DNA from: a virus
IMG/VR virus record: IMGVR_UViG_3300036766_000175
Location: 1-22,079 of that record
DNA: 22,079 nt
Direction: 5' to 3' (one strand)
This document shows positions 2,309-22,079 of this stretch, one piece after another. The notes beneath the pieces are model-generated. The model searched no databases and was not told the DNA's origin. It worked only from the letters and a program-made list of their open reading frames with translations. Within the stretch, counting starts at the first letter, position 1; each line of letters opens with the position of its first letter. The position numbers and the translations under genes were made by a program.

Positions 2309-3796
2309 GTGGCACGACGAAACATCTTTGCAGAGATGGCGTCAAGATTACGAGAAGTTGCAACAAATTGGATCTCGCCAAGTGATATGGCAGGACAATA
2401 TTCGCTTGTCACCGCAAAGATGAATTATACGCTTACTAAAGAACTGTATTACAACACAAATAAAGAGTATAAACTTGGAGCAGGCTTTGCAAAACCTGTA
2501 ATAAACACTACTGTTGGATTTTGTGGCATTCCAGACGTTATAGCAGATGATGATGCCGCTCAAGATGATCTTGATTCTTACATCATTAAATGGAGTGGCC
2601 TTTTACTTATTGCACAAAGAAACTGTTTGAGAGATGGTGATTCTTACATTAGATTTATGAAGTTAAAGAATGATTTAGTACTATTCAAAGGTGAAGAAAC
2701 AACGCTTCAGGCATTTTTGATTTCACCTGAATATGTGACAATTATTGCAGACGTCATTACAGGTGAAGCTGAAAAGTATATTATTAAAACTCCTGTTGAT
2801 TACACAGATGAAAATAACAATCATTTTAATTTTACTGTAATAGAAACAATTACAAAAGATCAAAGAATGGTTTCATACAGTGGTACTAATGTGCCTGCTA
2901 CGCTTACAACTTTACAAGAAGCAAACGCTTGGGGTTTTATTCCAATCATTCACTTCAAGAATTCAGCAGAGCCGAACGAGATGTATGGACGATCGGAGCT
3001 TGAAGTCATTGAACCATTTATGAAAGCTTACCATGATGTATTCATTCAAGCTATGCAATCAAATAAGCTTCATAGCAATCCAAAAGTCAGACTAAAATTG
3101 TCAGACGTTGATGGCTTTTTAAATCATAATTTCACAAAAGAACAAGTTGCAGAGTCAAAGAGGACAGGAAAGCTGGACTTCAATAAGGATATTTACTTAC
3201 TGAATGTCAATGAAGATATGGGATTTGTTGAAGTACAAAGTGCAATTGGATCAGCTGAAGTTTTATTGAAGTTTTTATTCTACTGCATCGTTGATGCTTC
3301 ACAAGTTCCAGAGTTTGCTTTTGGAACTGCAGTACAAAGCAGCAAAGCAAGCGTTTCAGAACAGCTTATTCCATTAGAGAAAAAAATTGCAATCAAAAGG
3401 TTAGAACTTCAACCATTATACCAAAGGCTTATTAGAATGATTTTAGCAATGTTGTCCATTGCCAATGCAAAAACGTTTACTACTTATGGCTGTTCATTTC
3501 AATGGCAAGATGTAAGTCCAGCTGATGAAGTTGCAACATCAACGATTTTATTCAATACTGTGCAAGCATTAACAATGGCTGTGGAAGGTCAGATTGTCAG
3601 CCAAGAAGCTGCAACTGACTTTTTAGCAGATCTTATTCCAACATTGCATCGATTTATAAGTGCTGATAAAGACATAGCAAGCGAAAAAGATAGGATCATT
3701 GCAGGTTTATTACTAATGCAACAAACTAAGAACGGAACAATTGCAGACGTATTGCAAAAAGAGATGTTGGCTAAAACTGGGATAGCTAAACAATGA
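2309..3796 (+). CDS. Portal protein (SPP1 gp6-like)
   Basis: The portal is the dodecameric ring at one capsid vertex through which DNA enters and leaves, the docking site of the terminase and of the tail connectors. Family assignment rests on overall sequence character, 495-residue length, the KLHSNPKV segment in the middle, the helical SSKASVSEQ-LIPLEKK segment (about residues 343-360) typical of SPP1-type portals, and its place right after terL. The start is GTG at 2309, one base after the terL stop, with AGGAGG at 2298-2303. The stop overlaps the next start as ATGA, indicating translational coupling to the MuF gene. Confidence 0.93.
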   Translation: MARRNIFAEMASRLREVATNWISPSDMAGQYSLVTAKMNYTLTKELYYNTNKEYKLGAGFAKPVINTTVGFCGIPDVIADDDAAQDDLDSYIIKWSGLLLIAQRNCLRDGDSYIRFMKLKNDLVLFKGEETTLQAFLISPEYVTIIADVITGEAEKYIIKTPVDYTDENNNHFNFTVIETITKDQRMVSYSGTNVPATLTTLQEANAWGFIPIIHFKNSAEPNEMYGRSELEVIEPFMKAYHDVFIQAMQSNKLHSNPKVRLKLSDVDGFLNHNFTKEQVAESKRTGKLDFNKDIYLLNVNEDMGFVEVQSAIGSAEVLLKFLFYCIVDASQVPEFAFGTAVQSSKASVSEQLIPLEKKIAIKRLELQPLYQRLIRMILAMLSIANAKTFTTYGCSFQWQDVSPADEVATSTILFNTVQALTMAVEGQIVSQEAATDFLADLIPTLHRFISADKDIASEKDRIIAGLLLMQQTKNGTIADVLQKEMLAKTGIAKQ

Positions 3797-5607
3797 GCTG
3801 GATAGAAACATTTAAAAACAGTACAACACCTGATTACTTCAAATACATTTCATCTGCTCGATCGGAGTTCCTAAATGCACGTATAGCGCTGTCACAAAAC
3901 ATCAGCAATATGTATACACAATATGCAATGGCCATTGAGAAACAAATTCGTGATCTAGGAGTTCATACATTACAAACTGCACAGCTTGAACAGCTGGCTT
4001 ATAGCATGCGGCAAGAAGCGGCACATTTAGCAACTGGGTTAACTACTGTTGTAAATGATTCAATGGTAGAATCAATGCGATTGGCAACAGATCCTTCAAA
4101 ATATGCATTGCTTAAAGCTTCAAAAGGAGTACTGAATGAGGCTGAAGTTAAAGCATATTTTGTCAAGGTCAATTCAAATGCTTTAAGCTATTTTATGTCA
4201 AAGACTGAGCACAATCCACTATTTATCAGTCAAAGAGTTTGGGGTATAGCAGCACAAGCAAATACAGCAATTGTTGGCATTTTAAAAGATTCAATTGCTG
4301 TTGGTGCTGACTCATTTAAAACAGCGAGACTGCTAGGAGCATATGTTCAAGGAAGTGGAACTGCACAGCGAGCATTGATTCGTCAATTGAAAGACGGTGG
4401 AATTAAGAAATATTACGTGCCAAAAGATATAAGCTTTGAAGCTCTACGACTTGCTCGAACAGAAACGTCAATGGCATTTATGGAAGGCACCTATAAAGGT
4501 GGCCAAGCGAATCCTCTTTACCGAGGCATTAATTGGCTACTGTCAGCAAATCACATGATAACAGATATATGTGATGATTATGCGGCTCAAGGCTTTTTTG
4601 CAGCTGGCGAAGAACCTGAACTTCCACATCCTCAATGTGGCTGTACTCAAGTAGATGTTTTTGAAGATGCAGAAGATGCAGCAAATGATTTGAAAGACTG
4701 GGTCAACGATCCTTCAAGTCATCCTGAATTGGAGCAATGGTATAATGAACAATATTTGCCTGCTCTTGGAAAAGAAGCTATTGAAGTTCCATCAGCGATT
4801 GCATTCAGTGAAAACTTTGATAGCATAGCAAGAAGTGCTGGCTGGACTGATCAACAGCTTGCTGCTATTAAAAAGGATCTTTCAACTTCAATCACACCAA
4901 ATCAGTCTGCTTCACAGTTAGCAAAACTACGAAGCAATATGGAACGTCAGTATGGAATTTCAAAGAGCACCCAAGGAACTGTGGATGATTTGATGCAGGC
5001 GTGGTTAGAGAATTCGTCAGACCTTGCTAGCACGTTGAATGCTGATAAGCTACTGTTAAACTGGAAAGGCATGATAGCTGAGCAGTACGATCAACAGCTG
5101 CAAAAAGCATTAACGTTTAGATCAATGTTTGCACAGCAATACGCAAAAGCAATATATGGTGATACAATAACATTATATCGAGCAGTCGACGATGGTAATG
5201 CATGGCTTCAGTTGTTAAGGACTGTTGGTAAAAACAATGAGCTTACTAATTATATGCAATCAGCGCAGAGCCTTCGTGAATTTGATGTTAATAAACTACG
5301 CACGCTGTTAGGAAAAGATGCTAAGACAATTTTGAAGTTCAATGTTAATGCATTAAGTTCATGGAGTTCTGATCCTACGCTGATTGATTACTTTGGAAAT
5401 GTTACACTAAAACAAACGTTTGCAACAGCTGATATTTTTACAGCATATGCTGTTGATCCAGTGCTTACGACTGAGTGTGAAGAGTTTATCATGACATCAT
5501 TAACTAACAAAGGTACAGTAGAAATGACAGTCGAGCAGCTATTAATGGCTATGAAACGAAGTCCAGAGATTGTAAATGCTTTTGTTGATGCCTTGGGTGG
5601 CTTTTAA
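3793..5607 (+). CDS. MuF-type minor head protein fused to an ADP-ribosyltransferase-like domain
   Basis: The N-terminal half (about 1-300) is a MuF/SPP1 gp7-type head morphogenesis protein: helical region, LARTETSMAFMEGT (220-233) and the terminal HPQCGC motif (279-284), as in proteins bound to the portal inside the head. Normal MuF proteins end near here; this one continues to 604 residues. The extra C-terminal part (about 370-600) has the R-S-E layout of ADP-ribosyltransferases: TLYRAV with R463, SSWSSD (522-527) in the place of the Ser-Thr-Ser strand, and ECEEFIM (561-567) with candidate catalytic glutamates. MuF proteins with C-terminal toxin domains, including ARTs, are known from Firmicutes prophages. 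The MuF part is clear; the ART assignment is an inference from spaced motifs, and which glutamate is catalytic is uncertain. It starts within the portal stop (ATGA). Confidence 0.85.
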   Translation: MSWIETFKNSTTPDYFKYISSARSEFLNARIALSQNISNMYTQYAMAIEKQIRDLGVHTLQTAQLEQLAYSMRQEAAHLATGLTTVVNDSMVESMRLATDPSKYALLKASKGVLNEAEVKAYFVKVNSNALSYFMSKTEHNPLFISQRVWGIAAQANTAIVGILKDSIAVGADSFKTARLLGAYVQGSGTAQRALIRQLKDGGIKKYYVPKDISFEALRLARTETSMAFMEGTYKGGQANPLYRGINWLLSANHMITDICDDYAAQGFFAAGEEPELPHPQCGCTQVDVFEDAEDAANDLKDWVNDPSSHPELEQWYNEQYLPALGKEAIEVPSAIAFSENFDSIARSAGWTDQQLAAIKKDLSTSITPNQSASQLAKLRSNMERQYGISKSTQGTVDDLMQAWLENSSDLASTLNADKLLLNWKGMIAEQYDQQLQKALTFRSMFAQQYAKAIYGDTITLYRAVDDGNAWLQLLRTVGKNNELTNYMQSAQSLREFDVNKLRTLLGKDAKTILKFNVNALSSWSSDPTLIDYFGNVTLKQTFATADIFTAYAVDPVLTTECEEFIMTSLTNKGTVEMTVEQLLMAMKRSPEIVNAFVDALGGF

Positions 5608-5849
5608 TGAGTAGTTTAGCAGTATTAAATGACAATGGTTTAAAGCTTAGTAGCTTCATTGAGCACTTTTCAAAAATGCAGCGAGAACAGTTTGATGCTA
5701 TGTCACAAAAGCAACAGAGAGAGCTTTTGTTAAAATACCTTGAAATTCGCAGCACATACAGATCTAAAAAGTTAGCTAATGATGATCTTAAAAGAGCTTT
5801 AGATGCGATTACGTTTGATGATGTGAAAAAGGAGATCAACAATGGCTGA
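5607..5849 (+). CDS. Small protein after MuF-ART, function unknown
   Basis: I do not recognise this 80-residue protein. It is charged, predicted mostly helical, with a Q/R/K-rich centre (FSKMQREQFDAMSQKQQREL) and no signal peptide or membrane segment. Its ATG shares one base with the MuF-ART stop (TAATG), so the two are translationally coupled. In MuF polymorphic toxins the gene directly downstream is often the immunity gene, so this is a candidate partner; a small head or scaffold accessory protein is an equal alternative. It overlaps the next gene by 8 bases. Confidence 0.8.
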   Translation: MSSLAVLNDNGLKLSSFIEHFSKMQREQFDAMSQKQQRELLLKYLEIRSTYRSKKLANDDLKRALDAITFDDVKKEINNG

Positions 5850-6069
5850 CAATGAGCAATTACCAAAAGGAATGATAGCTACTGCGGAGATATCAATAAA
5901 AGATATTGATTATGCAGGCATTTTGTTAAGAAAGATAGAGGAGATTAAAGGAGACTTTAACTTTAATCTATTGTCGTTGCAAATAAACGAAGGCGAAGGT
6001 AAGTCGCCGACGATTGCGTTAGTTTTGCAGGTCTTACCGAAGGAGGTAAAAGATGCCCTATCCAAATGA
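5842..6069 (+). CDS. Small protein, function unknown
   Basis: This 75-residue protein has no family I recognise. The middle alternates hydrophobic and polar residues (ATAEISIKDIDYAGILL, then FNFNLLSLQI and TIALVLQVL), suggesting a small alpha/beta fold. The start has AAGGAG at 5828-5833 inside the upstream gene. Its last 17 bases overlap the protease gene, whose ribosome binding site also lies within it. Position between a MuF-ART protein and the protease allows either an immunity-type partner or a minor head role. Confidence 0.8.
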   Translation: MADNEQLPKGMIATAEISIKDIDYAGILLRKIEEIKGDFNFNLLSLQINEGEGKSPTIALVLQVLPKEVKDALSK

Positions 6070-19337: not shown

Positions 19338-22079
19338 GTGGCAAACGCAAGTAACGCACCAAGCAATATAAAAGTTTATCCAATACCTGCTAAAGGAGTA
19401 GAGGTTAGAGCAACATTCACTTCTGCTAATGGAACGAATCCTGCAACTTATGCAAGGTTTCAAGTTTCAACAGACCCGAATTTTGGAACTACTGTTTACG
19501 ATTCAGGGCAAGTTTCAATAAGTCCAATAAGTGACGGCGCAGAAGGAGTAATGACATTTGGTTTTGTTCCTTCAAGTCAAGGGACTTATTATTACAGGCT
19601 TTGTTTTTGGGATAATGCAAATTATATACAAACGGACCTTACAGTTTGGAACGGTGCAACCGTAGGAGATGATGCGGGGCATACTGCATATGCTAGACCA
19701 AGTGGGGATAACTCGATTAGCACTGCCCTTTCTATTTTTCCGACAACTCCAACAACCCACTATGATAAGGTAGATGAAGTAACGCATAACGATAATACAG
19801 ACTATATTTATAATAGCGGGGTTTCGGGAACTTTTACCGATATTTACAATTGTCTTCAGTCAGGAATTGATGGAACAAATCTTCATAGAATTGCAAGCGT
19901 AAATCTTATCGCATATGCGAAGGTATTAAATGCTGCTAAATTAGCATATTTAAACTTAAAGGTAGGAAATACGTTTTCCGCAAACATAGATATGACGAAT
20001 GTTACTGCCTGGACGCAAAAAAATAAACTTTGGAGCACAAACCCAGATACGGGTTTAAATTGGACTTTGAATGATGTTAATAGCTTATTAATAGGTTTTA
20101 AATTTCAAGACAGCTGGGGTGCATATCTTTATATTACTCAACTCTACGCAGAAATTACTTATTATAACTATACAATAACGTTTACACCACCTGGAAATAA
20201 TATTCTAAATATCGGTTATCCTTCAGTTTCAAGTATCGATGTTAATAACAATCAAGAAAACTTTACCTTTACGGTTCAAATTCAAGATACTTATACCAAG
20301 CCTCCGATGGTAACTTTGAATGTAGACAATAAAGGTTATTTAATGGACTATGTTTCAAGAGTTGGTTCAGGACCTTATACTTATACATTTATAAAGACTT
20401 TGCCACTTGAGACAGGAAAACACCAATACCAATTTATTATCAGTAATGTCTGGACGACTTTAATAAGCAATACATATAATCTATATGCAAACTATCAATC
20501 AAGCAAAGATGTAAAAATCTATGTAGATAATAAGCAAATAAACGCTTGGAATATAATTTTAACCGAGAATCTTTTGCCCGATGTAAATGAAGCTTCATTC
20601 GTGACTGATAATGTTATAGATTCAATTTCTGTGGAATTGAGGGTAAAAACTGGAAGGCAAGTAAAGTTCTATCAAATGCAAATCAAAAACAACGCAAGGT
20701 CGGGCTCGAATTGGCAGTATACAGTTTACTCGACTCTCAAAAAAGAGTTGAAAAAGACAATTTCTTATGGAGCGCAGGTTACGAGTTCGCAGTCTTTACT
20801 TCAAAAGATTTTGCCTGCTTATTCTATTTTTGGAAATTTAACCGAGAATATTTATTTTCAACAATTTACTGATAAGACTATTGCAGAAGTTCTATCCTAT
20901 TTGATTATGATTAACCAAGTTCGAATGCACGAGAGAAACGGGAAAATATATATTTTAGAAGACACAAATCCGACTTATACCTTACAAAACTTGGAAAAAC
21001 AAGGTGAAGATAGGGACAATATTATAAATATAGTTCGAGAATACTATAAATTACTACAGACTCCTGTGCCTGCGACGGCTTTAACCGAATATGATGCCTC
21101 GAATTGGGCTGGAACTGTGGTAAATGCAATTCAAACTTCTAATGGTATTTTACCGCCTTCGAACTCTCCCTATATGTTAAAAGCGACTGGCGAAATATAT
21201 AGGTCGAATATAAGCATAACGCCAACAGATTATGATAGGTTTCATTTGAATTGGAATCCTGACACAGCAACGACTTTAACGATTAAATTAGAGACAGACA
21301 CTTCGAATTACTACTCTTATACGAGGACTTTTTCAGGCGGAAAAGGTGCGGGCTTTGTTTTACTTGGTGGTTCTGCTCAAGATGTTGTAAGCAAAACAAT
21401 AGCTTTTGGAAGCACAAAACTTGTTTCGAATATAACGGGGCAGACTTCTGATAACTGCTCATATAAAATACAATTAAAATTAAATGGAAGTGTCGTTCTT
21501 GACACTGGCTGGCTTACAACTTTTCAGAAGTCCTTTAACTTGCCTTTCTTCAATACAAACGCAGATACAATAGTTCTATACTTTACGAATCTTTATCCTG
21601 TCGGGACTTCATACGGGGTAAACTGCCAGCAGTTGACTATTCAAGAGTATGCAAATGTCGTTGTCTCTACGCAGAAAACCGAAGAAATTGTAACGGGGCA
21701 AAGCCTAAAGGGAAGCGGAAGTGTAGATATAACTTATAATGCTCCGACTTTTACCCTTCATGCAAAAGTGGCCGCTGGGAGTGCTTATTCAGTTTCAGGA
21801 AATCAATCGCTTCTGGTAAATGTTTATGGTTTTGCAATTAACTATTTCCAGGGAGGTATAACAAGAGGGGCAATCATAGGTGCAAGTTGGTATACTGAAA
21901 ATGGAATACTTTACCTCGAAGCTACTATGACCGTTCCAGGACCCGACAACGTAGATTATGCTTGGTGCAGTTATGACGTTTGGGAAGCAGTAGTGACTAC
22001 CACGTACACATCTGTTTACGGTTGGCAGTATATAACTTATGCCTGGCAGCAGACTTATAATTTATTTGATTCTATCGAC
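19338..22079 (+). CDS. Tail-tip / baseplate hub protein, partial (3' end beyond window)
   Basis: The frame from GTG 19338 stays open for 914 codons to the last base, so the gene is incomplete at its 3' end. GGGAGA at 19324-19329 is its ribosome binding site. Residues about 7-105 look like a fibronectin type III domain (RFQVSTDPNFGTTVYDSG, GTYYYRLCFWDN). Residues about 113-275 form a jelly-roll seen widely in phage structural proteins (KVDEVTHNDNTDYIY, WSTNPDTGLNWTLNDVNSLLIGF, ITQLYAEITYY). Residues about 390-580 resemble a tail-hub (gp27/Tal-like) region (KIYVDNKQI, VELRVKTGRQVKFY, SLLQKILPAYSIFG, AEVLSYLIMINQVRMHERNGKIYILED). The rest is beta-rich with repeated sandwich-like segments. It follows the Dit-like gene by 15 bases, where the tail-tip protein belongs. 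No enzymatic motif is visible in this part. Confidence 0.8.
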   Translation, partial: MANASNAPSNIKVYPIPAKGVEVRATFTSANGTNPATYARFQVSTDPNFGTTVYDSGQVSISPISDGAEGVMTFGFVPSSQGTYYYRLCFWDNANYIQTDLTVWNGATVGDDAGHTAYARPSGDNSISTALSIFPTTPTTHYDKVDEVTHNDNTDYIYNSGVSGTFTDIYNCLQSGIDGTNLHRIASVNLIAYAKVLNAAKLAYLNLKVGNTFSANIDMTNVTAWTQKNKLWSTNPDTGLNWTLNDVNSLLIGFKFQDSWGAYLYITQLYAEITYYNYTITFTPPGNNILNIGYPSVSSIDVNNNQENFTFTVQIQDTYTKPPMVTLNVDNKGYLMDYVSRVGSGPYTYTFIKTLPLETGKHQYQFIISNVWTTLISNTYNLYANYQSSKDVKIYVDNKQINAWNIILTENLLPDVNEASFVTDNVIDSISVELRVKTGRQVKFYQMQIKNNARSGSNWQYTVYSTLKKELKKTISYGAQVTSSQSLLQKILPAYSIFGNLTENIYFQQFTDKTIAEVLSYLIMINQVRMHERNGKIYILEDTNPTYTLQNLEKQGEDRDNIINIVREYYKLLQTPVPATALTEYDASNWAGTVVNAIQTSNGILPPSNSPYMLKATGEIYRSNISITPTDYDRFHLNWNPDTATTLTIKLETDTSNYYSYTRTFSGGKGAGFVLLGGSAQDVVSKTIAFGSTKLVSNITGQTSDNCSYKIQLKLNGSVVLDTGWLTTFQKSFNLPFFNTNADTIVLYFTNLYPVGTSYGVNCQQLTIQEYANVVVSTQKTEEIVTGQSLKGSGSVDITYNAPTFTLHAKVAAGSAYSVSGNQSLLVNVYGFAINYFQGGITRGAIIGASWYTENGILYLEATMTVPGPDNVDYAWCSYDVWEAVVTTTYTSVYGWQYITYAWQQTYNLFDSID

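What the first reader, a model, noticed from the sequence alone, without database searches (positions are those of the whole stretch)
3793..5607. MuF head protein carrying an ADP-ribosyltransferase-like C-terminus
The chain runs about 300 residues past the MuF end motif HPQCGC, and the extension has the spaced elements of an R-S-E ADP-ribosyltransferase: R463 in TLYRAV, SSWSSD at 522-527, and glutamates at 561-564 before a hydrophobic strand. Since MuF proteins sit inside the head near the portal, this could be an enzyme injected with the DNA to modify a host target (compare T4 Alt) or used against rival bacteria as proposed for MuF polymorphic toxins.
Basis: partly seen in the sequence, partly recalled or inferred. 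Interest (0 to 1): 0.8.

Follow-up and report, generated by a model that had tools for sequence, protein, structure and literature searches.

The report
Phage head protein with ADP-ribosyltransferase-like tail
A phage head protein carries an extra tail whose three short signature motifs match protein-modifying enzymes (ADP-ribosyltransferases), probably a toxin or takeover enzyme injected with the phage DNA; this kind of fusion is already known, but this tail is too divergent for standard family searches to recognise.

Summary

The extension is a swapped-in module. The closest relative found (L002, capsid protein 82% identical) has a 330-residue MuF that stops where the extension begins, and it lacks the 80-aa ORF that follows here. 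Elsewhere in the same phage family this site carries other enzymes: a PF03496 ADP-ribosyltransferase (ART), HExxH peptidase-like domains and JAB-like domains.

Calling this extension an ART rests on motifs. Pfam, PHROGs, NCBIfam, PADLOC and PDB searches and both AlphaFold models gave nothing usable, and it does not match a profile of VIP2/Alt-type phage ARTs. It does match the R / S-aromatic-[ST]...F / ExE layout of T4 ModA and ModB. A pattern for that layout hits six of the seven Mod-family ARTs collected, three unannotated look-alikes and this ORF, and nothing else among 3,191 ORFs; 3 of 300,000 shuffles match.

Best reading: a MuF polymorphic toxin or effector of known architecture (compare Bxa), with a divergent Mod-like ART and a candidate immunity ORF. 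ART assignment about 0.75-0.8.

The parts
3793..5607 (+). MuF head protein with C-terminal extension (604 aa)
   Evidence: single ORF; lies directly after portal (2309-3796, 4-base overlap) and terminase large subunit
3793..4767 (+). MuF domain and its normal tail, residues 1-325
   Evidence: phrog_1657 E 7e-67 over aa 10-321; 53% identical to the short 330-aa MuF of L002
4627..4644 (+). HPQCGC motif, residues 279-284
4768..5604 (+). C-terminal extension, residues 326-604; predicted ADP-ribosyltransferase module
   Evidence: absent from L002, whose MuF stops here; the same site carries other modules in the family; motif match
5170..5187 (+). TLYRAV, residues 460-465; R463 = predicted motif I Arg
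   Evidence: compare LWRGV (T4 ModA) and LYRGI (T4 ModB)
5356..5394 (+). SSWSSDPTLIDYF, residues 522-534; predicted motif II
   Evidence: same spacing as SASYDKNIALHF (ModA), SFSSDFATARQF (Serratia phage X20), SWTTDQKIAERF (phiM12)
5473..5493 (+). ECEEFIM, residues 561-567; predicted ExE motif, E561/E563
   Evidence: compare ECEFML (mar005), EQERML (KP185), EQEVMI (ModA)
5607..5849 (+). 80-aa ORF overlapping the MuF stop by one base (TAATG); candidate immunity protein
   Evidence: absent between MuF and the next gene in L002; no family above any cut-off
5842..6069 (+). conserved flanking gene (LPKGM protein), right border of the inserted module
   Evidence: orthologue directly follows MuF in L002 (L002:6737-6979)

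Best explanation
The gene encodes a MuF polymorphic toxin/effector. The N-terminal MuF domain places the protein in the capsid near the portal. The C-terminal module is a divergent R-S-E ADP-ribosyltransferase with T4 ModA/ModB-like motifs (R463; S523/S525 in SWSS; E561/E563). It would enter the cell with the DNA and transfer ADP-ribose from NAD+ to a bacterial target, either to help takeover or to poison a rival. The 80-aa ORF directly downstream was probably gained with it and would protect the producing cell. Shown: the MuF domain, the gene context, the module border, the modularity at this site in the family, and the three motifs. Inferred: ART fold and activity, packaging and injection, the target, and the immunity role.
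For: MuF profile hit and portal/terminase/capsid context. Exact module border against L002, which also lacks the 80-aa ORF. Site polymorphism: 16 of 39 MuF clusters (90% identity) carry extensions over 140 aa, of at least three kinds, including a PF03496 ART at E 2.2e-18 in L036. Motif match to biochemically known Mod ARTs: the pattern hits only six Mod ARTs, phiM12, L151, L153 and this ORF among 3,191 ORFs, and 3 of 300,000 shuffles. A DNA pattern for motif II alone found L151 and L153, which also have the unselected Arg and ExE. Literature: MuF fusions to ARTs and downstream small ORFs are common (PMC5576092, PMC9503650); Bxa is a proven antibacterial MuF-ART with cognate immunity proteins (PMC11699363).
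Against: No hit in Pfam, PHROGs, NCBIfam, PADLOC or PDB sequences for the extension. HHalign against VIP2-type phage ARTs gives 10-18, inside shuffles (max 20) and decoys (max 21), while real divergent ARTs score 76-148. Against Mod plus SW-type profiles it scores 22.8 (1 of 120 shuffles higher), and only the motif II stretch aligns. AlphaFold models are poor. The R-to-S spacing (about 60) exceeds that of the Mod ARTs (about 25), and YRA replaces YRG. No homologue of the extension was found, so conservation is untested. Some short-MuF loci also have a small ORF after MuF.
Confidence: 0.7

Rival explanations
1. The extension is an exchangeable MuF toxin or effector module of another fold (for example a nuclease or an all-helical toxin), and the R, S and E motifs are coincidental.
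For: No ART profile or fold evidence; no homologues; more than half of the predicted MuF toxins carry nuclease domains (PMC5576092).
Against: Three motifs in the right order, motif II in the exact ModA register, very low chance rate; motif II found alone in other phages is accompanied by R and ExE.
Confidence: 0.18
2. An ART used only as an early host-takeover enzyme, like T4 Alt/ModA, not a competitive toxin; the 80-aa ORF is an unrelated small phage gene.
For: The motifs resemble ModA/ModB, which modify RNA polymerase and translation proteins (record notes); about 44% of phage ARTs lie in head-packaging contexts (PMC9503650); some short-MuF relatives also have small ORFs after MuF.
Against: The small ORF is gained together with the extension relative to L002, and the L057 and L016 extensions are likewise followed by overlapping small ORFs, as described for MuF toxins.
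Confidence: 0.3
3. The extension is a structural or decayed remnant (scaffold-like tail or inactive ART) with no enzymatic role.
For: A neighbouring group (L057) has an ART-like extension apparently lacking the Arg, so inactive versions may exist; some MuF C-terminal extensions have no known toxin domain (PMC5576092).
Against: The ORF is intact with the same GC3 as its neighbours and retains all three motifs; the close relative does without the extension, so it is not needed for the head.
Confidence: 0.1

Closest known systems
Bxa, MuF-fused ADP-ribosyltransferase of Bacteroides stercoris prophage (PMC11699363)
   Same: MuF N-terminus, C-terminal ART, head-morphogenesis locus, small downstream ORFs of which one or more give immunity
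   Different: different phage and host; larger protein (869 aa); has an ADP-ribosyl-hydrolase immunity gene, none seen here; the extension here gives no hit to phrog_16625 (annotated as Bxa ADP-ribosyl transferase) beyond the MuF part
T4 ModA/ModB (RSE-clade phage ARTs)
   Same: R / S-x-[ST]...F / ExE motif layout and register of motif II
   Different: stand-alone enzymes in T4, not fused to MuF; shorter R-to-S spacing; YRG not YRA; overall sequence similarity not significant
PF03496 (ADPrib_exo_Tox, VIP2/Alt-type) MuF extensions, e.g. L036 and Microbacterium phages Clock and Alakazam
   Same: ART fused at the same site of MuF, L036 in the same phage family
   Different: window extension has no detectable similarity to this ART type
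MuF polymorphic toxins (PMC5576092; Apk2, PMC12226406)
   Same: short versus extended MuF forms, variable C-terminal enzyme, small ORF downstream
   Different: toxin domain not in curated libraries

Membership tests
MuF polymorphic toxin | N-terminal MuF domain in a phage head gene cluster | tested here: met
   phrog_1657 7e-67; terminase, portal and capsid neighbours
MuF polymorphic toxin | C-terminal extension of at least 100 aa that varies among relatives with conserved MuF | tested here: met
   short MuF in L002; ART, HExxH, JAB and other extensions elsewhere in the family
MuF polymorphic toxin | small ORF (<150 aa) directly downstream, linked to the toxin module | tested here: met
   80-aa ORF at 5607-5849, absent in L002; its immunity function is untested
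MuF polymorphic toxin | toxic activity and neutralisation by the small protein | not testable with these tools
   needs expression experiments
RSE-clade ART (Mod-like) | R, S-x-[ST] and ExE motifs in order | tested here: met
RSE-clade ART (Mod-like) | significant profile similarity to known family members | tested here: inconclusive
   HHalign 11.8 (Mod only) and 22.8 (Mod plus SW), only motif II aligned
RSE-clade ART (Mod-like) | ART fold | tested here: inconclusive
   AlphaFold pLDDT about 50, Foldseek 0 matches
PF03496 / VIP2-Alt-type ART | profile match | tested here: not met
   no Pfam hit; HHalign inside the null while positives score 76-148
any ART | NAD+-dependent transferase activity | not testable with these tools
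   needs an enzyme assay

The most novel reading that the evidence does not exclude
The extension belongs to an ART family not recognised by the libraries searched, related to T4 Mod enzymes and including the SWTTD proteins of phiM12, L151 and L153, and it has been recruited as a head-delivered MuF toxin with its own new immunity protein (the 80-aa ORF). In the survey passage I read (PMC9503650), the MuF fusions named are Alt/VIP2 and N4-ART types, not Mod types.
Probability: 0.45. Interest if true: 0.5.

Novelty: new member of a known kind. Interest (0 to 1): 0.4.

Why it matters
It is a clear case of an enzyme module and a candidate immunity gene inserted at the end of a phage head protein, with a close relative showing the empty site. 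If the ART assignment holds, ARTs invisible to standard profile libraries are being missed in MuF toxins, and the motif II pattern S-[AFWY]-[ST]-x(8)-F between R and ExE is a usable way to find them. The architecture and proposed use are already described, so the surprise is limited.

Tried and rejected
Homologue searches for the extension: viral contigs with three different peptide sets, genome contigs (14), phages, plasmids, 300 and 399 Bacillota genomes (40, 60, 80). All weak hits were checked or judged chance: a sugar-phosphorylase-like protein and an amidotransferase-like protein, an Aeromonas phage protein lacking the Arg. CARD_2 and HepT Pfam hits are far below cut-off. A VIP2/Alt-type assignment was tested with positive controls and decoys and rejected. 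AlphaFold alone and with five sequences: both poor, Foldseek empty. Pattern search in 290 Bacillota genomes: chance hits only. L149/L150 pattern hits carry no R or ExE and were discarded.

Full report
Observation. The ORF 3793-5607 is real and uninterrupted, 604 aa. It follows the terminase large subunit and an SPP1-type portal gene, and a cement-like and a capsid-type protein follow downstream. Residues 10-321 match PHROG 1657 head morphogenesis (E 7e-67). The window is the whole virus record of 22,079 bases.

Module border. Using the capsid protein I fetched the phage family. The closest relative, L002 (capsid protein 82% identical), has a MuF 53% identical to ours that ends after LPALEGLRV, exactly where our extension begins at LPALGKEAIEV. 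In L002 the next gene is the LPKGM protein; in the window an extra 80-aa ORF (5607-5849) lies between, overlapping the MuF stop by one base. So the extension and the small ORF together form the inserted stretch. GC3 of the extension (0.30) is like that of its neighbours, so the composition does not point to a recent foreign origin.

Polymorphism at the site. Of 39 MuF clusters at 90% identity, 16 carry extensions of more than 140 residues after HPxCxC (a few of these are fragments of one group). They include a PF03496 ADP-ribosyltransferase (L036 group, E 2.2e-18), HExxH peptidase-like domains (L016, L033, L040, L042, L045, L049, L084; L086 also shows one) and JAB-like domains (L022 with a sub-threshold RadC-like hit; L087; also L125 and L130 from genomes). 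The L016 and L057 extensions are followed by overlapping small ORFs. This is the pattern described for MuF polymorphic toxins (PMC5576092). Caveat: some short-MuF loci (L007, L013, L014) also have an ORF of about 85-130 aa after MuF.

Is the extension an ART? Library searches give no answer: nothing in Pfam, PHROGs, NCBIfam or PADLOC, and no ART in PDB sequences. I built a profile from phage ARTs of the VIP2/Alt type and ran controls. Left-out real ARTs score 76-148 and the divergent L057 group scores 42.5, but the window scores 10-18, inside shuffles and decoys. So it is not detectably of that type.

A DNA pattern for motif II only (SSW[ST][ST]DP-x-[VIL]-xxx-F[AG]) in 2.9 million viral contigs gave six loci, four of them plausible genes. 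L151 and L153 also carry HRG or YRG before and EQE or EKE after, although these were not selected for; L152 is cut upstream but has ENE; L154 has Q in place of R. One of them led to Sinorhizobium phage phiM12 (LFRGM, TSWTTDQKIAERF, EFEVLV). From there I compared T4 ModA and ModB, annotated as RNA polymerase ADP-ribosylases, and relatives. Their motif II (SASYDKNIALHF, SFTTSLHTACSF, SFSSDFATARQF, SFTVDEKIACEF) has the same register as the window's SWSSDPTLIDYF, and their ExE includes ECEFML and EQERML, comparable to ECEEFIM here. A pattern for this layout hits six of the seven Mod ARTs collected (the seventh, K4, is annotated as only 124 aa and no ExE was found in it), phiM12, L151, L153 and the window, and nothing else in 3,191 ORFs (736,000 residues); 3 of 300,000 shuffles of the extension match. 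The pattern was composed after seeing all members, and two tolerances (A after R, one residue after ExE) were set partly for the window, so these figures are optimistic. Profile comparison supports only the motif II stretch (22.8, 1 of 120 shuffles higher). The R-to-S distance is about 60, against about 25 in Mod ARTs.

Structure. AlphaFold with one sequence and with five gave mean pLDDT of 52 and 50; Foldseek of the second found nothing. The fold is therefore untested rather than contradicted.

Mechanism. Best reading: the MuF part holds the protein in the head (MuF proteins are thought to be present in 2-3 copies, PMC12226406), the C-terminal ART enters with the DNA and modifies a bacterial target, and the 80-aa protein protects the producing cell. 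Bxa (PMC11699363) is an experimentally shown example of a toxic MuF-ART: its C-terminal ART domain is toxic in E. coli, loses toxicity on change of the catalytic Glu, and is neutralised by adjacent genes. Whether the enzyme here serves takeover of the host, like T4 Alt and Mod, or attack on rivals cannot be decided from sequence; the linked small ORF favours a toxin that its producer must be protected from.

Verdict. Confirmed observation; known architecture; divergent, probably Mod-like ART module without recognisable homologues in the collections searched. New member of a known kind, interest 0.4.

Noticed in passing
L036:3098-4816 (also L055, L060, L074-L076): MuF of the same phage family with a clear PF03496 ADP-ribosyltransferase at the same C-terminal site (E 2.2e-18).
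   Followed up: yes
L057:4903-6657 and L061/L063/L064/L066/L067: MuF extension with ART-like motif II/III (IRSWSQ ... SHYAEQYEVL) but LYVYE where YRG is expected, so apparently without the Arg; followed by a 91-aa ORF overlapping by 4 bases.
   Followed up: partly
L016, L033, L040, L042, L045, L049, L084, L086; L022, L087, L125, L130: Other MuF extensions in this family: HExxH peptidase-like domains in the first group, JAB/RadC-like HxHP domains in the second.
   Followed up: partly
L056:4641-6359, L073: MuF extension of unknown type (GKGVYGNGTYTA ... YDAIDIPSPGFMLVLNRG), with no family hit.
   Followed up: no
L159:988-1491 (phiM12), L151:7721-8470, L153:1197-1904, L152:4259-4570: Unannotated phage proteins with R / SWTTD / ExE motifs: candidate ARTs absent from the libraries searched (L152 is cut before the Arg position). 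L154 (phrog_4776) is similar but has Q for R.
   Followed up: partly
window 19338-22079: The record ends inside a long ORF; it is a virus fragment. The tail-region ORFs from 14909 on were not analysed.
   Followed up: no
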